Positions 21,038 to 34,402 of a stretch of 37,871 nt of DNA are shown here, piece by piece. The first letter of the stretch is position 1, and every line of letters starts with the position of its first letter. The translations under genes and the position numbers were made by a program. The notes below the pieces were generated by a model. The model saw only the letters and a list, made by a program, of their open reading frames with translations. It did not search any database and was not told where the DNA came from. The DNA is from Actinomycetes bacterium (GTDB lineage Bacteria; Actinomycetota; Thermoleophilia; Solirubrobacterales; Solirubrobacteraceae): the NCBI GenBank assembly GCA_021846845.1, contig JAJZWB010000019.1, positions 1 through 37,871 of the forward strand. Direction: 5' to 3'.

Positions 21038-22612
21038 TCAGCGGGCGAGCTCGCGCACCGCGGCGATCAGATCCCGGGTGGGGACCTCGCACCCCGGCCT
21101 CGGCTCGCCCGGCTCGGACAGCAGCACGAACGGCACCGGGCCCGAGCCGACCCGCTTCTTGTCGCGCGCGGTGGCGACGACGACCGCATCGGGGTCGAAC
21201 CGCCCGCGGCCGGTCGGCAGGCCGCGCGCGCGCAGCAGCTCCGCCACCTCGCCGCGCAGGTCATCCGCTCCCGAGAGCCGCAGCGCCGCCATCAGCCCGA
21301 GCGCGACGGCCTCCCCGTGGCGGTACGTCGCGTAGCCGGTGACGGTCTCGATCGCATGCCCCACCGTGTGCCCGAGGTTGAGCACCTGGCGCAGACCGGC
21401 ATCGCGCTCGTCGCGCGCGACGATCCGCAGCTTGGTGTGCGCGCAGGCCGCGACGATTCGCGGCCAGTTCGGGTCCTCCCAGCCGGCGCCGCCGCGAACC
21501 CGCTCCCACAGCCAGCCGCCTGCGATCAGCGCTGTCTTGACCACCTCCGCGTAGCCTGCCGCGAGCTCCGCCGGGGGAAGGGTCGCGAGCGCGTCGGTGT
21601 CTGCGATCACGGCCCTCGGCTGGTGAAAGACGCCGACGTAGTTCTTGGCCTCTGGAAGATCCACCCCCGTCTTGCCGCCGTAGGCCGAATCGACCTGGGC
21701 CACGAGCGTGGTCGGCACCTGGACGATCCGCACCCCGCGCTGGTAGGTGGCGGCGCAGAAGCCGGCGAGGTCGCCGACGACGCCACCACCGAGTGCCACC
21801 ACGACATCGGCGCGCGTCATGCCGGCGCGAGCGAGCTCCGTCCAGACGATCTCGGCGTGCGCGACGGTCTTGGACTGCTCGCCGGGCATCACCGTCACCC
21901 GCCCGTCGACGGCTCCGAGCCGATCGCCGTACAGCCGCGCGGCGTTGTAGTCGCTGACCACGAACCGGCGACCGGCGACGGTGGCCGGCCAGAACGGCCG
22001 CTCGCCGAGCAGTCCGGGGCCGACATAGGCCGGATGGTCGCCCGACGCGGTGGATGCCCAGAGCATCGTGACCCTGTCGGGCACGCCCTCGTGAGCGGCC
22101 AGCACCGCGGCCATCGACCTGCTGGCCTGATGGCCGACGATCACGTCGGCGGCCGCGGCGTACAGCGGCTCGCGCTCGGCGTGCAGGCGCACGAAACGCT
22201 CCCGGTCCGCGGCCAGCGGCCTGGACCCTTCGCCGCAGCGAGCCCACGCCGTCTCGGGGTCGACGTCGAGCCAGACCACGAGGTGGCCGCGGAGCGCCTC
22301 GCGAACCGCCGCGGAGCCGATCGCCCCCCCGCCGAGCGCCAGGACGCGCCGCGCGGCGCGACCGTCAGGCCCCCGCCGGGAGGCCTCCTGCGCGAGCAGC
22401 TCGAGCGTGATGCGCTCCTCGGCGGCGCGGAAGGCGCCCTCGCCGTCCCGCGCGAAGATCTGCTCGATCCGATGCCCGAGCCGCCCCTCGATCTCGCGAT
22501 CGACGTCGACCGCCTCGGCGCCGAGCGCGTCCGCAACGGCACGCGCGGCGGTCGACTTCCCGGCCCCCATGAAGCCGATCAGCGCGACGGCCGGCGTCAG
22601 ATGTCCCCCCAC
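21038..22612 (-). CDS. aroKB: Bifunctional shikimate kinase / 3-dehydroquinate synthase (AroK-AroB fusion)
   Basis: N-term IGFMGAGKSTAARAVADALGAEAVDVDREIE (shikimate kinase); C-term DVVVALGGGVVGDLAGFCAATYQRGVRIVQVPTTLVAQVDSAYGGKTGVDLPEAKNYVGVFHQP (DHQ synthase) in one uninterrupted ORF. Confidence 0.92.
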   Translation of the reverse strand: MGGHLTPAVALIGFMGAGKSTAARAVADALGAEAVDVDREIEGRLGHRIEQIFARDGEGAFRAAEERITLELLAQEASRRGPDGRAARRVLALGGGAIGSAAVREALRGHLVVWLDVDPETAWARCGEGSRPLAADRERFVRLHAEREPLYAAAADVIVGHQASRSMAAVLAAHEGVPDRVTMLWASTASGDHPAYVGPGLLGERPFWPATVAGRRFVVSDYNAARLYGDRLGAVDGRVTVMPGEQSKTVAHAEIVWTELARAGMTRADVVVALGGGVVGDLAGFCAATYQRGVRIVQVPTTLVAQVDSAYGGKTGVDLPEAKNYVGVFHQPRAVIADTDALATLPPAELAAGYAEVVKTALIAGGWLWERVRGGAGWEDPNWPRIVAACAHTKLRIVARDERDAGLRQVLNLGHTVGHAIETVTGYATYRHGEAVALGLMAALRLSGADDLRGEVAELLRARGLPTGRGRFDPDAVVVATARDKKRVGSGPVPFVLLSEPGEPRPGCEVPTRDLIAAVRELAR

Positions 22613-23763
22613 CCGATCCGGTCGCGGTAGGCGCGCACCGCCGCTCGCGCGTCGTCGATGTGATCGCCGCCGAACTTGCGCCGATACGCGTCCGCGAGCA
22701 CGAACGCGACCATCGCCTCGGCGACCACCCCGGCGGCCGGCACGGTGCAGGAATCGGTTCGCTCGCGCAGGGCCTGCGCCGGAGCGTGGGTGGAGATGTC
22801 CACGGAGCGCAGCGGCTTGGTCAGCGTGGGCAGCGGCTTCATCGCCCCGCGCACGACGAGCGGCTCGCCGGTCGTCATCCCCCCCTCGACGCCGCCGGCG
22901 CGATTGGTCTCCCGGTGGAGGCCGCGCCGCTCGTCGTAGAAGATCTCGTCGTGTGCCCGGGAGCCCGGCAGACCGGCCACCTCGAGCCCATCGCCGATCG
23001 CGACCGCCTTGACCGCCTGGATCGAGAGGATCGCCTGGCCGAGCACGCCGTCGAGACGCTCCTGCCAGGAGACGTGCGAGCCGAGTCCGGGGACCAGGCC
23101 GAAGGCCCGCACCTCGAACACCCCGCCAAGCGACTCGTTCGCCTTTCGCAGCCGGTTGATCTCCTCGACCATCGCGCGACCGGCCTCGGCGTCCAGGCAG
23201 CGGACCGGCGATTCGTCGACGCCCCCGAAGTCATCGGGGCGCAGGTCGTCGCGGCGGGGCGCCGCGACGCCGGCGATCTGGATCACGTGCGAGAGCACCT
23301 GCACCCCCATCGCGGTCAGGAACGCCTTCGCTACCGCGCCGCCGGCGACGCGCGCCGCGGTCTCGCGCGCGCTCGCCCGCTCGAGGATGTCCCGCACGTC
23401 GGTGAGGCCGTACTTCTGCGTGCCGGCCAGGTCGGCATGACCCGGACGCGGGAGGTGGACCTCCGCCGGAGGGTCCTCCACGGGCCAGGGGCTCATGCGC
23501 TCCTGCCAGTTGGCGAAATCGCGATTGGCGACTGTGAGCGCGATCGGACCGCCGAGCGTCCGGCCGTGGCGGACGCCGGCGGTCACCTCGGCCCGGTCTC
23601 GCTCGATCTTCATCCTCCCACCGCGCCCGTGGCCCAGCTGGCGGCGGGCCAGGTCACGGTCGATCGCCTCTCGGTCGAGCATCAGGCCGGCCGGCATGCC
23701 CTCGACGATGCACGTCAGGCCCGGACCGTGAGACTCGCCGGCGGTCGTCAGCGTGAGCATCAT
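22597..23763 (-). CDS. aroC: Chorismate synthase
   Basis: TTAGESHGPGLTCIVEGMPAGL, GRGGRMKIERDRAEVTAGVRHGRTLGGPIAL, RASARETAARVAGGAVAK, GGMTTGEPLVVRGAMKP. Confidence 0.95.
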   Translation of the reverse strand: MMLTLTTAGESHGPGLTCIVEGMPAGLMLDREAIDRDLARRQLGHGRGGRMKIERDRAEVTAGVRHGRTLGGPIALTVANRDFANWQERMSPWPVEDPPAEVHLPRPGHADLAGTQKYGLTDVRDILERASARETAARVAGGAVAKAFLTAMGVQVLSHVIQIAGVAAPRRDDLRPDDFGGVDESPVRCLDAEAGRAMVEEINRLRKANESLGGVFEVRAFGLVPGLGSHVSWQERLDGVLGQAILSIQAVKAVAIGDGLEVAGLPGSRAHDEIFYDERRGLHRETNRAGGVEGGMTTGEPLVVRGAMKPLPTLTKPLRSVDISTHAPAQALRERTDSCTVPAAGVVAEAMVAFVLADAYRRKFGGDHIDDARAAVRAYRDRIGWGDI

Positions 23764-23951
23764 CAGACCGCTGCCGCGCCCTGCTCAGCCGGTGCCTGCT
23801 GCGCGTCGATCCCGGGGATCCGGTGACCGGTGCCACGACACCATGAACACACGACCTCGTGGGGAGTGCCGCCGAGGCCGGAGATCAGGCGTCCGGTGCC
23901 GCGGCAGGGGCTGCAGCGCTGCTCGCTGGGGTTGGTCTCGTCTACGGCCAC
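23763..23951 (-). CDS. Small DnaJ-type zinc-ribbon protein (two CxxCxGxG motifs, 62 aa)
   Basis: GTG start at 23951; VAVDETNPSEQRCSPCRGTGRLISGLGGTPHEVVCSWCRGTGHRIPGIDAQQAPAEQGAAAV; stop overlaps aroC ATG (ATGA). Confidence 0.7.
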   Translation of the reverse strand: MAVDETNPSEQRCSPCRGTGRLISGLGGTPHEVVCSWCRGTGHRIPGIDAQQAPAEQGAAAV

Positions 23952-23962
23952 GGCCGGGCAGG

Positions 23963-24829
23963 TTAGCCGCTGGCGCGACCCGCCCCCGGGTCGCCGCGCA
24001 TCGCACCGCCCGCGACGGCTCCGCAGCCGGCCGCCATCCCGACGGCGGCGCGCATCGCGTCGAGCGGCGCGGCCAGGCCGGTGAAGCGCTCGAAGCTGAG
24101 CGCGCCCTGGCCGACCAGGAGCTCGAGCCCGTCGACGGCCGGGATCCCGCGCTCGCGAGCGGCCTCGATCAGCCGCGTCCCGCGATCGGTGTACACCAGG
24201 TCGACGACGCACCCGTAATCGAACAGCGCGTCGGCGGTCAGCGGCAGACGCCCGAACGGATCGGAGCCGTCGAGGCCCACCGCGGTGCAGTTGACCAGCA
24301 GGTCCGCGGCCGCCGGGCTGCTGACCGGCGTGCCCCCCAGCGCAGAGCACAGCTCGACCGCCCGCTCGTGCGTGCGGTTGAGCACCGACACCCGCGCCGC
24401 TCCGGCGTCGAGCAGCGCCCACACGGCGGCACGAGCGCTGCCGCCGGCGCCGAGCACGAGCGCGGACCTGCCGGCGACCCCGAACGGCAGCGCCGCGACC
24501 AGCGCCGGCGCGTCGGTGTTGTCGGCGTGGATCAGTCCGCCGGCGCCGAAGACCAGCGTGTTGGCGGCACCGATCGCACGGGCGGCCGGGGTGACGTCGG
24601 TTGCGAGGCGCAGCGCCGCCTGCTTGTGGGGGATGGTGACGTTGGCGCCCGCGAACCCCGCCGCCGGAAGCGCGGGGACGATCTCGCCGAGCAGCGCCGG
24701 CGGCACGGGCAGGAGCTGGTAGCGCCAGCCGTCCAGGCCCGAGGCGGCGAGCGCAGCGTTCTGGATCTGAGGCGAGCGGCTGTGCGCGACCGGCCACCCG
24801 AGCACGCCGAGGCGCCTGGCGCGGCCCAT
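23963..24829 (-). CDS. aroE: Shikimate dehydrogenase
   Basis: LGVLGWPVAHSRSPQIQNAAL, GANVTIPHKQAAL, GAANTLVF, LVLGAGGSARAAVWALLDAGAARVSVLNRT. Confidence 0.93.
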   Translation of the reverse strand: MGRARRLGVLGWPVAHSRSPQIQNAALAASGLDGWRYQLLPVPPALLGEIVPALPAAGFAGANVTIPHKQAALRLATDVTPAARAIGAANTLVFGAGGLIHADNTDAPALVAALPFGVAGRSALVLGAGGSARAAVWALLDAGAARVSVLNRTHERAVELCSALGGTPVSSPAAADLLVNCTAVGLDGSDPFGRLPLTADALFDYGCVVDLVYTDRGTRLIEAARERGIPAVDGLELLVGQGALSFERFTGLAAPLDAMRAAVGMAAGCGAVAGGAMRGDPGAGRASG

Positions 24830-27114: not shown

Positions 27115-29784
27115 TCATCCGGTGTCGGCCTCTAGCCTCGATTCGATCAGCCTGCCTGCCGCCTCGAGCGCCTCGGGCAGCCTGTCCGGCTCTCGCCCAC
27201 CGGCCCGCGCCATCGTGTCGCGTCCTCCCCCGCCGCCCCCTACCAGCGTGGCCGCCTCGCGGACCACCTCGCCGGCACGAACGCCGCGGCTCACGAGCGC
27301 CGGCGCGACGCTCACCACCAGGTCGACACGGCCGTCGCCGGCGCGCCCGAGCACGATCGCCGCGTCCCCGAGCCTGCTCTTGAGCTGGTCCACGAGCGGG
27401 AGCAGCGCGTCGCCGTCCGCGATCGAGACGGACGCCGCGAGCACCCGAGCGCCCGCGACCTCCCTCGCCGCGGCCGCCAGAGCTTCGACGTCGACGGCGG
27501 CGCCCCCACCGCCGCGCCGGCTCTCGCGCTCAAGCTCGCGGACCCGCTCCGACAGCCTCAGCACGGTCTCCGCGACCCGGTCAGCGGGCACCCGCAGGCG
27601 CTCGGCGGCGAGCTGCAGCTCGTGATCGCGGGCCCTTGCGAGCGACACCGCCTCGGGGCCGGTGATCGCCTCGATGCGCCTCACGTTGGCCGCGCTTGAC
27701 GTCTCCGACGTGATCCGGAACAGCCCTATCTCCGAGGTCGCGCGCACGTGCGTGCCTCCGCACAGCTCGCGGGAGACGAGCCCACGCTGACCGTCGTCGG
27801 GCCCGTCGCCGACCTCGATCATCCGCACGATGTCGCCGTACTTCTCGTTGAACAGCGCCATCGCGCCCAGCGCCTTCGCCTCCTCGAGGGTCGTGGTCAG
27901 AGCCCGAACGGGGTGGCTCTCGACGATCCAGCGGTTGACGTCGTCCTGGACCTGGGCGAGCTGCTCCGGCGTCAGCGCCGCGCCATGGGTGAAGTCGAAC
28001 CTGAGCTTGTCGGGCCCGACGTATGAGCCTGCCTGGTGTACGTGGGTCCCGAGCCTGCGCCTGAGCGAGGCGTGCAGAAGGTGGGTAGCGGTGTGGTTGC
28101 AGGCGGTCGCGTGCCGTACCGCCGGGTCGACGTGCGCCCTGACGCGCCGGCCGATCTCGAACGAGCCGTGCTCGGGCTCGAGCCTCACGACCTGGTCGGA
28201 CCCCAGCCGTATGACGTCGGCGACGCGGGCACGGCACTCGCCTCCCTCGCACTCAAGGTAGCCGCTGTCGGCCACCTGGCCGCCGCCGGTCGCGTAGAAC
28301 GGCGACTCGAGCAGCTTCACGAGCACGGTGCCGTCCTCACCGGCGACCGCACCGATCGTCGTCTCGGCGTCGGTCGTCTCGTAGCCGACGAACTCGGTCT
28401 CGAACCCAGCGCCGCTGGACAGCGACACCGCCCGGTCTCGAAGCGCGTCGCCGCCCCGCTCGCCCCGCCCGTGACGGCGCGCGCGAGCGCGCTGCTCCTC
28501 CATCAGCGACTCGAACCCCGCCTCGTCCACGCCGAGGCCGTGCTCGGCGACGATCTCGAGCGTCAGCTCGATCGGGAAGCCGAAGGTGTCGTGGAGCTGG
28601 AACGCGTCGGCGGCCGCGATCCCCTCGGCGTCCTGCTCCCGCGCCTGCTCGATCAGCTCGTCGAGCCGCCTCAGCCCGACGGCGAGCGTGCGACCGAAGC
28701 TCTCCTCCTCGGACGACAGCCAGCGGCGCACCGTGTCCCGCTGCTGCGACAGCTCCGGGTACTCGTGCGCCATCAGCTCGGTCACGACGTCGGCATAGCG
28801 AGACAGGAACCCGGGGTCGAGGCCGAGCGCTCGCCCCTGCTGGATCGCGCGACGCATCACGCGCCGCAGCACGTAGCCGCGGTCCTCGTTTGAGGGCACG
28901 ACGCCGTCGGCGAGCAGGAAGGTCATCGCGCGACCATGGTCGGCGAGCACCCGCATCGCCCGGTCGGCCTGGAATCCCTGACCGTAGCGGCGGCCGGACA
29001 GCTCCTGGCCCAGCTCGATCAGCGGCCAGAACTGGTCGGTCTCGAACACGCTGGGCTTGTCCTGGAGGATCGCCGCCATCCGGTTGAGGCCCAGGCCGGT
29101 GTCGATGTTGCGCGCCGGCAGCGGCGATACGACGTTGACCGGATTCTGGTCGAACTCCATGAACACCAGGTTCCAGTACTCCAGGAACCGTTCGTTGTCT
29201 CCGCCCGGAAGGTCGTCGGGGCGGCCGTGCTCGACGCCGCGGTCGAGGTACAGCTCCGAGCACGGGCCGCAGGGTCCCGTCGCACCGGCCTGCCAGAAGT
29301 TCTCCGAGCGCGGGCACTCGACGATCCGCTCACGCGGCACCCCGATCTCCAGCCAGGCGTCGATCGCCGTCTGGTCGGGGCCGAGGCCGAGCTCGTCGTC
29401 GCCCGCGAACACAGTGATCCAGATGTCGGCCGGGTCGAAGCCGAAGCCGTCGGTCGACAGGTCCCAGGCGAACCGGGCCGCCTCCGCCTTGAAGTAGTCG
29501 CCGAACGAGAAGTTCCCCAGCATCTCGAAGAACGTCAGGTGGCGCGTGGTCGTGCCGATGATCGCGATGTCCGGCGTGCGGAAGCTCTTCTGGCAGGTGG
29601 TGACACGCGGATGCGGCGGGCGCTCGGCGCCGGCGAAGTAGGCCTTCAGCGGGTGCATCCCGGCGACGGTGAACAGAGCCGAGGGGTCGTGCTCGACGGG
29701 CACCAGGGACGCGGACGGAAGACGCAGGTGGTCGCGTGCGACGAAGAACTCCAGGAAGGTGGCGCGGATCTCGTCCGAGGTCAT
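27115..29784 (-). CDS. alaS: Alanyl-tRNA synthetase
   Basis: FTVAGMHPLKAYFAGAERPPHPRVTTCQKSFRTPDI, HNTATHLLHASLRR-type editing motif (CNHTATHLLHASLRRRLG), SRELCGGTHVRATSEIG. Confidence 0.96.
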   Translation of the reverse strand: MTSDEIRATFLEFFVARDHLRLPSASLVPVEHDPSALFTVAGMHPLKAYFAGAERPPHPRVTTCQKSFRTPDIAIIGTTTRHLTFFEMLGNFSFGDYFKAEAARFAWDLSTDGFGFDPADIWITVFAGDDELGLGPDQTAIDAWLEIGVPRERIVECPRSENFWQAGATGPCGPCSELYLDRGVEHGRPDDLPGGDNERFLEYWNLVFMEFDQNPVNVVSPLPARNIDTGLGLNRMAAILQDKPSVFETDQFWPLIELGQELSGRRYGQGFQADRAMRVLADHGRAMTFLLADGVVPSNEDRGYVLRRVMRRAIQQGRALGLDPGFLSRYADVVTELMAHEYPELSQQRDTVRRWLSSEEESFGRTLAVGLRRLDELIEQAREQDAEGIAAADAFQLHDTFGFPIELTLEIVAEHGLGVDEAGFESLMEEQRARARRHGRGERGGDALRDRAVSLSSGAGFETEFVGYETTDAETTIGAVAGEDGTVLVKLLESPFYATGGGQVADSGYLECEGGECRARVADVIRLGSDQVVRLEPEHGSFEIGRRVRAHVDPAVRHATACNHTATHLLHASLRRRLGTHVHQAGSYVGPDKLRFDFTHGAALTPEQLAQVQDDVNRWIVESHPVRALTTTLEEAKALGAMALFNEKYGDIVRMIEVGDGPDDGQRGLVSRELCGGTHVRATSEIGLFRITSETSSAANVRRIEAITGPEAVSLARARDHELQLAAERLRVPADRVAETVLRLSERVRELERESRRGGGGAAVDVEALAAAAREVAGARVLAASVSIADGDALLPLVDQLKSRLGDAAIVLGRAGDGRVDLVVSVAPALVSRGVRAGEVVREAATLVGGGGGGRDTMARAGGREPDRLPEALEAAGRLIESRLEADTG

Positions 29785-29832: not shown

Positions 29833-31308
29833 CTACTCGGGGGCGGTCCGATACGCGAGCGGCCGGTCGATCGTACCCCAGCCGACGACCAGATCGCCAT
29901 CCATCAGGCACGCGAGCTGGCCCGGAGCGGCGCCGTCGGCCGCCTCACGCAGGTCGATCGACAGCGAGCGATGGGCGCCGGGCTCCGGATCCCCGACGAC
30001 GCGCGCGCGCAGCGGCCGGGTCCTGTAGCGGAGCTTGACGCGGTCGACGCGCGCACCGCGTCGGTGCAGCCGCGCGGCGCGGAGCGTCACCCGATCCGTG
30101 CGCAGCCGCTCCCGGGGCCCGACCGTGACGCGGCCGCTGACGGCGTCGCGCGCGAGCACGTACAGGGGCCGCGGCGCGCTGAGGCCGAGCCCGTGGCGCT
30201 GGCCGATCGTGAACCTGTGCTGTCCGGCGTGGTGACCGAGCACCTTCCCGGCGGCATCGACCAGCTCGCCGGTCCGATCCACGATCCCGCCATGGCGGGC
30301 GAGGAACGCCTCACGGGACGTGCCGGCCAGGAAGCACAGGTCCTGGGAGTCGGGCTTGGAGGCCACCGGAAGCCCCGCGGCGGCGGCGAGCTCGCGCACC
30401 TCAGGCTTGTGCAGCTCACCGAGCGGGAAGCGCATCCGACGCAGCGAGTCCGGCGCGAGCGCGGCGAGCATGTAGGTCTGGTCCTTGGCCCCATCCGCCG
30501 CGGAGCGCAGCAGCGGCCCCAGCGGGTCGCCGGCCTCGGCGACGCGGGCGTAGTGGCCGGTTGCCAGGCCGCCGGAGCACCCGAGGCGATCGGCGAGCGT
30601 GAGCATCGCGTCGAGCCGCACATGGCCGTTGCAGCGCACGCACGGGTTCGGCGTCTCGCCCGCCGCCCAGCCCGCGATGAACCGGTCCACCACGCCGGCC
30701 CGAAACGCGGGCCGGAGATCCAGCGTGAGGTGCGCGAGCCCCATCCGGTGCGCGAGCGCCCGGGCCTGGGCCACCGCGGTCGCAGAGCAGCAGCTTCGCT
30801 CGGCGTCGCCGACCTCGTCGGACCAGAGCTCGAGCGTCACCGCGACCGTCTCTCCTCCGCGCGCGCAGAGATGCGCGGCGACCGCGCTGTCCACCCCGCC
30901 GCTCATCGCGACCAGCGTGCGGCCCTCGGTGGGCGCGAGCACGGCGTGCTCGCGCACGGCGGCGCCGAGCGCGCGCGCGAGCGCATCGGCCGCGAGCTGC
31001 GCCGCATGCTCCTTGGCTGGGCTGAGGCCGCCGAGCTCAGCGGCGATCTCGGCGGCGCCGATCCGAGCCGCGTCGAGCACGGCGGCGCCGCGCACGAGCG
31101 TCACCGCAGCCGAGGCGGCCGCGGTGCAGGCGCCGCAGCCGTGCGCCTCGAAGCCCGCGTCGGCGACCGCGGCCCCCGTGACGGCGACCGAGAGCGCCAC
31201 CTCGTCGCAGCACGCATGCCCGCCCGCCACGGCGGTGTGGCAGCCGGGCGGACGATGCCCCAGGCCCTGGGGCGAGTTGAGGTGATGCTCGAACGCGAGC
31301 GCGTCCAT
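29833..31308 (-). CDS. mnmA: Fusion: N-terminal IscU/NifU_N-like Fe-S scaffold domain + C-terminal tRNA-specific 2-thiouridylase MnmA
   Basis: N-term MDALAFEHHLNSPQGLGHRPPGCHTAVAGGHACCDEVALSVAVTGAAVADAGFEAHGCGACTAAASAAVTLVRG...SPAKEHAAQLAADALARAL; C-term VAMSGGVDSAVAAHLC, GETPNPCVRCNGHVRLD, DSQDLCFLAG, HAGQHRFTIGQRHGLG; single ORF; GTG 31323 possible start. Confidence 0.88.
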   Translation of the reverse strand: MDALAFEHHLNSPQGLGHRPPGCHTAVAGGHACCDEVALSVAVTGAAVADAGFEAHGCGACTAAASAAVTLVRGAAVLDAARIGAAEIAAELGGLSPAKEHAAQLAADALARALGAAVREHAVLAPTEGRTLVAMSGGVDSAVAAHLCARGGETVAVTLELWSDEVGDAERSCCSATAVAQARALAHRMGLAHLTLDLRPAFRAGVVDRFIAGWAAGETPNPCVRCNGHVRLDAMLTLADRLGCSGGLATGHYARVAEAGDPLGPLLRSAADGAKDQTYMLAALAPDSLRRMRFPLGELHKPEVRELAAAAGLPVASKPDSQDLCFLAGTSREAFLARHGGIVDRTGELVDAAGKVLGHHAGQHRFTIGQRHGLGLSAPRPLYVLARDAVSGRVTVGPRERLRTDRVTLRAARLHRRGARVDRVKLRYRTRPLRARVVGDPEPGAHRSLSIDLREAADGAAPGQLACLMDGDLVVGWGTIDRPLAYRTAPE

Positions 31309-31325: not shown

Positions 31326-33125
31326 CTATCTGAGTCTGAGCCCCAGCTCCCGCAGCTGGAAGTCGTCCACCGGCGCCGGCGCGCCGGTCAGCGGGTCGCC
31401 ACCGCTGGTGGCCTTGGGGAACGCGATCACCTCGCGGATGTTGTCCCGGCCGGCGAGCAGCGCCACGATCCGATCGATCCCGAGCGCGATGCCACCGTGC
31501 GGCGGCGCCCCGTAGCGCAGCGCGTCGAGCAGGAACCCGAACCGTGCCCGGGCCTCCGCCTCGTCGATCCCGATCAGCTGGAAGACCCGCGACTGCACGT
31601 CGCCGCGATGGATGCGGATCGAGCCGCCACCGATCTCGTTGCCGTCGAGCACGAGGTCGTAGGAGCGTGAGAGCAGGCTCGCCGGATCGTCCATGTCGGC
31701 CGCTGTCGCCGGGTCGCCCGCCTGCGTGGCGGGGGCGGTGAACGGGTGGTGCTCGGCGTCCCAGCGGCCCTCCTCCGGCCGGTAGGTGAACATCGGGAAC
31801 TCGATCACCCAGCGAATGTCGTGGGAGCCCGCGGGCACCAGGTCGAATCGCCGCGCGAGCTCCAGGCGAAGCGCTCCCAGCGCCTGGGCCGTGACGGGCG
31901 CCTCGTCGGCGACGATCAGCAGGACATCGCCGCGACTCCCGCGCAGCGCGCGGGTGACGGCGGTCATCTCGGCGCCCGTGAGGAACTTGGCGATCGGCGA
32001 GCGCCACGGCTGCTCGCCGTCGTGGTCCTCGACGAAGGCCCACACGAGCCCCTTGGCGCCATGCTGCCTGGCCAGCTGGGTGAGCGCGTCGAGGTCGGAG
32101 CGGGTCAGCTCGCGAGCGCCGGCGTTGATCCCGCGCACCACGCCACCGCCGGCCAGCGCGCCGGAGAAGACCTTGAACTCGCTGTGGGCGAGGGCCGCGC
32201 CCAGATCGGCCAGCTCCAGGCCGAAGCGGGTGTCCGGCCGGTCGGAGCCGAAGCGCCCCATCGCCTCGGCGTGCGTCATGCGCGGCCACGGCGGTGAGGG
32301 CACGTCGAAGCCGGCGTCGCTGAACACCGCGGACATCACGGCCTCGGTCGTCTCGAGCACGTCCTCCTCGTCCACGAAGGCCAGCTCGACGTCGAGCTGC
32401 GTGAACTCGGGCAGCCGGTCGGCGCGCGCGTCCTCGTCCCGGAAGCAGCGGACGATCTGGTAGTAGCGCTCGAAGCCGCCGACCATCAGCAGCTGCTTGA
32501 ACAGCTGCGGTGACTGCGGCAGCGCGTAGAACGAGCCCGGGGCGATCCGGGCGGGCACGAGGAAGTCGCGGGCGCCCTCGGGCGTCGAGCGCGTCAGGAA
32601 CGGCGTCTCGATCTCGAGGAAGTCGCGCTCGTCCAGGACCCGGCGGATCGTCTGGATGACGCGGTGGCGCAGTGCGATCGCCTCCTGCAGCGGAGCCCTC
32701 CGAAGGTCGAGCGAGCGATGGCGCAGGCGCAGGTTCTCGTCAAGGGGGCCATCCTCGTCCACCGGGAACGGGGGCGTCTCGGCGTCCGCCAGGATCTCCA
32801 GGTCCGCGACCACGAGCTCGATCTCGCCTGTGGCGAGGTTGGGGTTGACGTTCTCGGGGGCGCGCTTGGCGATCGTCCCGGAGGCCGTGATCACGTCCTC
32901 TGAACGGAGCTTGTGCGCCTCCGCGTGCGCATCCGGCGCGGTCTGCGGGTTGAACACGAGCTGGAGCAGCCCCGAGCGCTCGCGCAGGTCGATGAAGATC
33001 AGGCCGCCATGATCGCGACGGCGGTGGACCCAACCCGACACGCGCGCGAAGCCGTCCGCCCGCCGAGCATCGAGATCGCCGGCCCAGCTGTCGCGATAGC
33101 GGTTGGCCCGCGGCGCGCGCTTCAC
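31326..33125 (-). CDS. aspS: Aspartyl-tRNA synthetase
   Basis: GWVHRRRDHGGLIFIDLRERSGLLQLVFNP, FLEIETPFLTRSTPEGARDFLVP, FRDEDARADRLPEFTQLDVELAFVD, GIALGIDRIVALLAGRDNIREVIAFPK; GTG start. Confidence 0.95.
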   Translation of the reverse strand: MKRAPRANRYRDSWAGDLDARRADGFARVSGWVHRRRDHGGLIFIDLRERSGLLQLVFNPQTAPDAHAEAHKLRSEDVITASGTIAKRAPENVNPNLATGEIELVVADLEILADAETPPFPVDEDGPLDENLRLRHRSLDLRRAPLQEAIALRHRVIQTIRRVLDERDFLEIETPFLTRSTPEGARDFLVPARIAPGSFYALPQSPQLFKQLLMVGGFERYYQIVRCFRDEDARADRLPEFTQLDVELAFVDEEDVLETTEAVMSAVFSDAGFDVPSPPWPRMTHAEAMGRFGSDRPDTRFGLELADLGAALAHSEFKVFSGALAGGGVVRGINAGARELTRSDLDALTQLARQHGAKGLVWAFVEDHDGEQPWRSPIAKFLTGAEMTAVTRALRGSRGDVLLIVADEAPVTAQALGALRLELARRFDLVPAGSHDIRWVIEFPMFTYRPEEGRWDAEHHPFTAPATQAGDPATAADMDDPASLLSRSYDLVLDGNEIGGGSIRIHRGDVQSRVFQLIGIDEAEARARFGFLLDALRYGAPPHGGIALGIDRIVALLAGRDNIREVIAFPKATSGGDPLTGAPAPVDDFQLRELGLRLR

Positions 33126-34402
33126 TAGAGCCGTCCCCCGCGGAGGATCTCGGCGATCGCCGCCGCCGGCTCGAGCTGCGATTGCTCTCCGGACCCCATG
33201 TTCTTGAGCGTCACCTGCATCGGGCCGTCGATGATCGCAACCCAGCCGGCGCCGATGCGGTCCGCCTGGCGCAGCTGGCCCTTGAGCGAGCGGCCCGCCA
33301 GCTCCATCTGGGCGCTCAGACCGGCGCGCCGTGCGCGGTTGGCCAGCTCGAAGGCTGTTCCCGTGACGCGCGTGCGGTCCTCCCGGCGCCCGCCGTCGCC
33401 GGCGACCGCGACCGCGACGAACAGGTCGACCACCGCCGGGGCGACCGGAAGCTCGCCGGCGGCGAGCAGCATCCGCTCCACCCCGGCCGCCCATCCCGCG
33501 GCGGGGGTCGGATCGCCTCCGAGCTGCTGCACGAGCCCGTCGTAGCGACCGCCGCCGCCGACCCCCGATTGGGCGCCGAGCGCGTCGGAGGTGAACTCGA
33601 ACACGGTCCGCGTGTAGTAGTCGAGGCCGCGCACCAGCGTCGGGTCAAGCTCGTACCGGAGCCCGGCGCCGTCGAGCAGCTCTCGCACCGCGGCGAAGTG
33701 CTCGGCGTCCTCGGGCGCCAGCCGGTGCAGCAGCAGCGGCGCGTCGCGCATCGTCTCCCGCGTGCGGCGGTCCCCGGCGTCGAACGCGCGCATCGGGTTG
33801 AGGTCGATCCGGGCCACCACCTCCGGCGAGAGGCCGTCCTCGTGCGCGCGCAGGAACGCGATCAGCTCCTGGCGGTAGTCGGCCCGGGTCGCCGGGGTCC
33901 CGAGGCTTGATAGCCGCAGACGGGTGCCGCGGATCCCGAGCGACTCGAGCAGGTCGGCCAGCAGCAGGATCAGCTCGGCGTCGGTCGCCGGCTCGTCGGA
34001 GCCGATCGCCTCCGCGCCGACCTGCCAGAACTGGCGGTATCGCCCCTTCTGGGGCGCCTCGGCGCGGAAGAAGCTCGACAGGTACCAGAGCTTCACCGGC
34101 TGCGCGAGCCGGTGCATGCCGTGCTCCAGATAGGCGCGGCAGACCGGCGCCGTGCCCTCCGGGCGCAGGGTGAGCGAGCGCCCACCACCGTCGTCGAACG
34201 TGTACATCTCCTTGCGCACGATGTCGGTCGCCTCCCCGACGCCGCGCGCGAACAGCTCCGTCGGCTCGAACGCGGGCGTCTCGATCCGTCCGTACCCGGC
34301 GGCGCCGAGGATCCGCTGCGCGTGGGCCTCCAGCAGCGCCCGGCGCTCGCAGTCCGCCGGGAGCACATCGAAGGTGCCGCGTGGGGCCTGGAACGAGCTC
34401 AT
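33125..34402 (-). CDS. hisS: Histidyl-tRNA synthetase
   Basis: APRGTFDVLPADC, RPEGTAPVCRAYLEHGM, FFRAEAPQKGRYRQFWQVGAEAIG, LVRGLDYYTRTVFEFTSD, GGGGRYDGLVQQLGG. Confidence 0.95.
   Translation of the reverse strand: MSSFQAPRGTFDVLPADCERRALLEAHAQRILGAAGYGRIETPAFEPTELFARGVGEATDIVRKEMYTFDDGGGRSLTLRPEGTAPVCRAYLEHGMHRLAQPVKLWYLSSFFRAEAPQKGRYRQFWQVGAEAIGSDEPATDAELILLLADLLESLGIRGTRLRLSSLGTPATRADYRQELIAFLRAHEDGLSPEVVARIDLNPMRAFDAGDRRTRETMRDAPLLLHRLAPEDAEHFAAVRELLDGAGLRYELDPTLVRGLDYYTRTVFEFTSDALGAQSGVGGGGRYDGLVQQLGGDPTPAAGWAAGVERMLLAAGELPVAPAVVDLFVAVAVAGDGGRREDRTRVTGTAFELANRARRAGLSAQMELAGRSLKGQLRQADRIGAGWVAIIDGPMQVTLKNMGSGEQSQLEPAAAIAEILRGGRL

What the first reader, a model, noticed from the sequence alone, without database searches (positions are those of the whole stretch)
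29833..31308. Fe-S scaffold (IscU/NifU_N-like) domain fused to the tRNA thiolase MnmA
One uninterrupted minus-strand ORF carries an IscU/SufU-type domain (HACCDEV in place of NPxCGDxx; HGCGACTAAASAA in place of GxGCxIxxAS) followed directly by a complete MnmA with both catalytic Cys motifs (NPCVRCN, DLCFLAG) and the PP-loop SGGVDS. The third IscU ligand Cys (usually KxxCxxL) is replaced (SPAKEHAAQLAADALARAL), so the domain may hold or hand over sulfur or a cluster differently from a canonical scaffold. The MnmA part also has an SCCS motif (AERSCCSATA) not needed by the classic two-Cys mechanism. Hypothesis: a self-contained sulfur/Fe-S relay feeding s2U34 synthesis in cis, possibly replacing TusA-E or a cluster-independent MnmA. 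The architecture may already exist in domain databases; I do not know of a functional description.
Basis: partly seen in the sequence, partly recalled or inferred. Interest (0 to 1): 0.72.

Follow-up and report, generated by a model that had tools for sequence, protein, structure and literature searches.

The report
IscU-like domain fused to MnmA
In soil actinobacteria related to Conexibacter, the enzyme that puts sulfur on tRNA carries a built-in relative of the iron-sulfur assembly protein IscU that lacks the residue human IscU uses to receive sulfur; the pattern points to an undescribed, testable way of feeding sulfur into tRNA.

Summary
Window 29833-31308(-) is one 491-aa ORF with an IscU/NifU_N domain (Pfam E=1.3e-17) followed by a complete MnmA. 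It is no artefact: the fusion recurs in nearly every Solirubrobacterales genome sampled, in other families of the class, in a complete genome (Conexibacter sp. S30A1) and in a Rubrobacter-like family. Sister lineages keep an unfused precursor, an iscS-iscU-mnmA operon beside aspS and alaS; in some, one in-frame stop codon separates iscU and mnmA. The MnmA part is C-type (CC-CxxC-C), described as Fe-S dependent, so the 'extra' SCCS defines its class. The IscU-like domain keeps Cys33, Asp35, Cys58 and His101, equivalent to the four iron ligands of free human ISCU2, but has Ala102 in place of Cys138, ISCU2's persulfide acceptor. The order appears to lack IscS and has SufS/SufU. Among 80 relatives the first Cys is kept in 79, the second in 72, the third in 30; one family keeps only a Cys-free remnant. 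Most likely it is a desulfurase-docking and sulfur hand-over module acting in cis rather than a classical cluster scaffold. I found no functional description in the papers held. Function is inferred, not shown.

The parts
29833..31308 (-). iscU-mnmA fusion gene, 491 aa (stop codon included)
   Evidence: ORF and translation; full-length fused homologues
30955..31308 (-). IscU/NifU_N-like domain, about residues 1-118
   Evidence: Pfam NifU_N 9-115, E=1.3e-17; AF2 model pLDDT 94-99 in this part; Foldseek to A. fulgidus IscU 4eb5_C, rmsd 1.3 A
31204..31212 (-). Cys33-Cys34-Asp35: Cys33 and Asp35 align with the first IscU ligand Cys and the Asp (human ISCU2 Cys69, Asp71); Cys34 replaces the usual Gly
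   Evidence: Alignments; coordinates
31135..31137 (-). Cys58, second IscU ligand (ISCU2 Cys95)
31003..31008 (-). His101-Ala102: His kept (ISCU2 His137), third ligand and persulfide acceptor (ISCU2 Cys138) replaced by Ala
   Evidence: ISCU2 roles from PMC11021402
30325..30918 (-). MnmA ATP-binding (PP-loop/HUP) domain with SGGVDS, SCCS (Cys173/174), NPCVRCN (Cys223/226) and DLCF (Cys325)
   Evidence: Pfam tRNA_Me_trans 131-328, E=5e-57; invariant columns
30118..30309 (-). MnmA central PRC-barrel domain
   Evidence: Pfam tRNA_Me_trans_M 334-397
29869..30042 (-). MnmA C-terminal beta-barrel domain
   Evidence: Pfam tRNA_Me_trans_C 423-480, E=1.2e-4, over its cut-off
27115..29784 (-). alaS, next gene downstream (48 bp gap); part of the conserved neighbourhood
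   Evidence: ORF; alaS near mnmA in relatives
31326..33494 (-). aspS, next gene upstream (the real start is probably internal to this ORF); ends 17 bp before the fusion's start codon
   Evidence: ORF; aspS upstream in relatives

Best explanation
The protein is a C-type (Fe-S-dependent type) MnmA with a covalently attached IscU-like adaptor. SHOWN by sequence: the fusion, its conservation, the precursor iscS-iscU-mnmA operon, the ligand changes, and that searches of Solirubrobacterales find SufS but no IscS. INFERRED: the adaptor docks on the available cysteine desulfurase (an IscS/NifS-type enzyme in Rubrobacter-like and other families, SufS in the window's order) through an IscU/SufU-type interface, holds one metal ion with Cys33, Asp35, Cys58 and His101, draws the desulfurase's Cys-persulfide loop to that site, and lets the sulfur pass, directly or through Cys33 as proposed for SufU Cys41, to the MnmA active site (Cys223, Cys226, Cys325 with its cluster), which thiolates U34. 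Because the residue equivalent to ISCU2's persulfide acceptor is gone, de novo cluster assembly by the ISCU2 route is not expected; the separate SufS/SufU system would do that. This would stand in for the TusA-E relay by tethering donor to acceptor.
For: Operon context: all 17 unfused rows of the tree have iscS beside iscU-mnmA, and 11 of 63 fusions keep it. Ligand pattern: Cys-Asp-Cys-His kept with the third Cys lost in 36/36 sampled f1-f4 genomes (35 Ala, 1 Val), 5/5 f5 (Gly) and 30/30 f23 (Ala or Gly), including its 5 unfused members. First Cys in 79/80, second in 72/80, third in 30/80. The four kept residues match the four iron ligands of free ISCU2, and the lost one is its persulfide acceptor (PMC11021402). 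SufU Cys41 lies in the position of the first Cys and is the proposed acceptor from SufS (PMC4934914). Solirubrobacterales genomes give only SufS-type desulfurases. The N domain is under purifying selection (median dN/dS 0.35 against 0.28 for the MnmA part). Confident joint fold, pLDDT 96.5, pTM 0.93, with IscU and MnmA matches. One family keeps a Cys-free folded remnant (hhalign probability 95%, E=2.7e-8, column shuffles at most 3%; AF2), which fits a docking role.
Against: No biochemical data. Fusions in f8, f10, f11, f55 and f73 mostly keep the third Cys, so cluster assembly there stays possible. Four f8 genomes have an MnmA with no such domain, so it is not strictly needed. A separate SufU presumably binds the same SufS; competition is untested. 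A TusA-family protein is encoded in the genome, so another relay cannot be excluded. The genome is a draft (95% complete).
Confidence: 0.5

Rival explanations
1. Dedicated cluster-loading domain: the IscU-like domain builds or stores an Fe-S cluster and delivers it in cis to the C-type MnmA, which needs a [4Fe-4S] cluster.
For: C-type MnmA of T. thermophilus has a [4Fe-4S] cluster and is inactive in air (PMC8584467); the domain is homologous to IscU scaffolds; all three Cys are kept in most f8, f10, f11, f55 and f73 fusions.
Against: Third Cys lost in the window's whole order, second Cys and Asp also lost in f9 and f12, all Cys lost in f7, while the C-type MnmA motifs stay: a C-type MnmA persists without a competent scaffold in cis.
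Confidence: 0.2
2. Structural relic: the domain came along when iscU and mnmA fused and now only stabilises the fold or helps bind tRNA.
For: Cys-free remnant in f7, absence in four f8 genomes, repeated ligand losses.
Against: First Cys kept in 79/80 and second in 72/80; Cys33 and Cys58 at 90% or more across 99 fusions; dN/dS close to that of MnmA.
Confidence: 0.2
3. Sequencing or assembly artefact, or gene-calling error, joining two genes.
For: The window comes from a 219-contig draft assembly.
Against: Fusion seen in many independent genomes, including complete chromosomes; the ORF is clean.
Confidence: 0.01

Closest known systems
C-type MnmA (CC-CxxC-C), e.g. Thermus thermophilus MnmA (Shigi et al. 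2020, cited in PMC8584467 and PMC11784392)
   Same: PP-loop SGGVDS, CC, CxxC and third Cys; complete three-domain MnmA
   Different: Window protein carries an extra N-terminal IscU-like domain
IscU / ISCU2 / archaeal NifU-1 (PDB 4eb5 chain C, 1wfz)
   Same: Fold (rmsd 1.3 A to 4eb5_C); first Cys, Asp, second Cys and His kept
   Different: Third Cys, the ISCU2 persulfide acceptor, is Ala; fused to MnmA; no IscS found in the order
SufU, zinc-dependent sulfurtransferase of Bacillus subtilis (PDB 6jzw, 5xt5)
   Same: Works with SufS; sulfur proposed to pass through the Cys in the position of Cys33
   Different: Much weaker sequence match (E about 0.003); SufU keeps three Cys; the genome has a separate SufU (L001)
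B. subtilis MnmA with dedicated desulfurase YrvO (adjacent genes; PMC10219651)
   Same: MnmA fed by a dedicated, co-encoded sulfur partner
   Different: Partner is the desulfurase itself, not an IscU-type domain; fused only artificially
iscS-iscU-mnmA operon of deep-branching Actinobacteriota (f6, f29, f51, f67; this work)
   Same: Same genes, same order, beside aspS and alaS where the sequence reaches
   Different: Separate genes, all IscU ligands kept, iscS present

Membership tests
MnmA (tRNA 2-thiouridine(34) synthase) | Equivalog HMM above its curated cut-off | tested here: met
   NF001138 307.2 against 284; TIGR00420 250.2 against 236.95
MnmA (tRNA 2-thiouridine(34) synthase) | s2U34 synthesis | not testable with these tools
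   Needs biochemistry or an mnmA mutant
C-type MnmA | CC, CxxC and third Cys | tested here: met
   Cys173/174, Cys223/226, Cys325, invariant in 99 fusions
C-type MnmA | [4Fe-4S] cluster | not testable with these tools
   Reported for T. thermophilus (PMC8584467)
IscU/NifU_N fold family | Significant NifU_N match and IscU fold | tested here: met
   Pfam E=1.3e-17; Foldseek 4eb5_C rmsd 1.3 A
Canonical IscU scaffold | Three ligand Cys plus Asp | tested here: not met
   Cys33, Asp35, Cys58 present, third is Ala102; below the NCBIfam IscU cut-off, 52 against 192 bits
Canonical IscU scaffold | Genomic pairing with IscS | tested here: not met
   No IscS-type desulfurase found in G000 or in ten relatives of the order, SufS only; precursor lineages do have iscS beside it
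Canonical IscU scaffold | Assembles and transfers an Fe-S cluster | not testable with these tools
   Needs anaerobic biochemistry
SufU | Equivalog HMM above cut-off | tested here: not met
   TIGR01994 29.5 against 92.5 bits; note that the genome's own SufU also falls just short, 86.4
SufU | Cys in the CGD position proposed to accept persulfide from SufS | tested here: met
   Cys33 aligns there; its function was not tested

The most novel reading that the evidence does not exclude
A new kind of sulfur-delivery module: an IscU-derived domain that has lost scaffold chemistry and works as a built-in, metal-bound docking platform which captures the persulfide loop of SufS (or IscS) and hands sulfur straight to an Fe-S-dependent tRNA thiolase, replacing the Tus relay in a large part of the deep-branching Actinobacteriota.
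Probability: 0.35. Interest if true: 0.7.

Novelty: new variant of a known kind. Interest (0 to 1): 0.5.

Why it matters
How the cluster of C-type MnmA catalyses sulfur transfer is described as unclear (PMC8584467). A natural covalent link between an IscU-type protein and such an MnmA ties sulfur supply to the thiolase and makes the question testable with a single protein. The natural series from a full ligand set to a Cys-free remnant gives ready-made variants that tell docking apart from cluster chemistry. It also shows how an operon (iscS-iscU-mnmA) turns into a fused enzyme.

Tried and rejected
Artefact or frameshift: rejected by recurrence in independent and complete genomes. 'Extra SCCS motif': rejected, it is the class signature. 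Loss of the third Cys caused by fusion: rejected, because the unfused iscU of the Rubrobacter-like family also lacks it and several fused families keep it. A statistical link between loss of adjacent iscS and loss of the third Cys: same direction in most independent pairs, but only 4-5 pairs, not significant. Single origin of the fusion: not supported; at least 7 fused/unfused changes on the MnmA tree, though deep branches are weak. Interdomain Cys distances: model coordinates are not released by the tool. Occurrence outside Actinobacteriota: could not be searched (no handle in another phylum; the one genome-contig scan reaches close relatives only). Literature: nothing found with MnmA, NifU and 'fused', with Thermoleophilia and MnmA, or on an MnmA fusion of this kind; only openly licensed papers are held, and Shigi 2020 itself is not.

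Full report
CHECK. The ORF 29833-31308(-) translates without a stop to 491 aa. Pfam finds NifU_N (9-115, E=1.3e-17), the MnmA ATP-binding domain (131-328) and the two other MnmA domains. NCBIfam calls the protein MnmA above cut-off but not IscU, NifU or SufU. PDB sequences closest to the first 121 residues are yeast Isu1, A. fulgidus NifU-1 and an archaeal-type IscU; SufU is much further off. The alignment to A. fulgidus NifU-1 puts Cys33, Asp35 and Cys58 on the corresponding ligands and Ala102 on the third Cys.

HOW WIDESPREAD. A scan of GTDB genomes with the protein returned full-length fusions from many Solirubrobacterales, including the complete chromosome of Conexibacter sp. S30A1. Of 299 genomes of the class, 291 matched, and most of the listed matches span both domains in one frame.

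WHERE IT CAME FROM. Family f6 of the same class, and f29, f51 and f67 elsewhere in the phylum, have iscS, iscU and mnmA as separate neighbouring genes; in f6 aspS lies upstream and alaS downstream. In three of the f29 genomes, f51 and one f23 genome the two reading frames are in phase, with a single stop codon between them. In f10, f11 and f23 the iscS gene still precedes the fusion. The MnmA tree needs at least seven changes between fused and unfused, so fusion or splitting recurred; deep branches are not firm.

LIGANDS. Unfused iscU genes outside f23 keep the first Cys, Asp, second Cys, His and third Cys. In the window's order (f1-f4) 35 of 36 sampled genomes have Cys-Asp-Cys-His-Ala and one has Val at the last place; f5 has Gly; f23 has Ala or Gly, also in its five unfused members; f9 and f12 keep only the first Cys; f8, f10, f11, f55 and f73 mostly keep all three Cys. 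Among tree rows with a recognisable domain the first Cys is present in 79 of 80, the second in 72 and the third in 30. In f7 only a Cys-free stretch of about 75 residues remains; a profile comparison shows that it is homologous (probability 95%, E=2.7e-8; shuffled columns at most 3%), and AF2 folds it with confidence as three strands and a helix.

WHAT THE LIGANDS SAY. In human ISCU2 free Fe is held by Cys69, Asp71, Cys95 and His137, and Cys138 receives the persulfide from NFS1 (PMC11021402). The window domain keeps the counterparts of the first four and lacks the fifth. In B. subtilis SufU the Cys41 loop, the position of Cys33 here, is the proposed receiver from SufS (PMC4934914). So the ISCU2 route looks closed in this lineage, and a SufU-like route or direct transfer to MnmA stays open. 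This is inference from homology.

PARTNERS. G000 has SufS next to a SufU. No IscS-type desulfurase was recognised there among the Pfam aminotransferase class V matches, nor in ten Solirubrobacterales genomes searched with the IscS model, where best hits are 90-117 bits; the two of them that were classified are SufS. A TusA-family gene and a DsrE-like gene lie together on another contig (DsrE is my reading of the sequence); whether they serve tRNA is unknown.

MNMA PART. CC, CxxC and the third Cys are invariant in 99 fusions, which makes it a C-type MnmA; that type from T. thermophilus carries a [4Fe-4S] cluster and is inactive in air (PMC8584467).

STRUCTURE AND SELECTION. The AF2 model has pLDDT 96.5 and pTM 0.93, which suggests a defined placing of the two domains, but coordinates are not released. 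Foldseek matches MnmA (2hma, target TM 0.87) and IscU (4eb5_C, 1.3 A). Median dN/dS over 120 pairs is 0.35 for the N domain and 0.28 for MnmA (a rough NG86 estimate on GC-rich genes).

VERDICT. A real, conserved combination of two known families for which I found no functional description. I commit to a desulfurase-docking and sulfur hand-over role in cis (0.5), with cluster loading (0.2) and structural relic (0.2) as rivals.

Noticed in passing
L200-L202 (f29), L209 (f51), L214 (f23): iscU and mnmA in the same reading frame separated by one stop codon: natural one-step intermediates of fusion (or fission).
   Followed up: partly
f7 loci, e.g. L103, L062, L065: MnmA with a conserved Cys-free N-terminal extension of about 75 aa that is a remnant of the IscU-like domain.
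   Followed up: yes
L096-L099 (f8): MnmA without any IscU-like domain inside a clade that also holds fusions: apparent complete loss.
   Followed up: partly
L086 (G000 contig C62): TusA-family gene beside a DsrE-like gene in a genome in which no IscS was found; role unknown.
   Followed up: no
window 31207-31212: Vicinal Cys33-Cys34 (CCD instead of CGD) is shared by many close relatives of the window protein; Cys61 is seen only in the window protein among those printed.
   Followed up: partly
window 22600-24829: Shikimate dehydrogenase and chorismate synthase genes downstream of alaS on the same strand.
   Followed up: no
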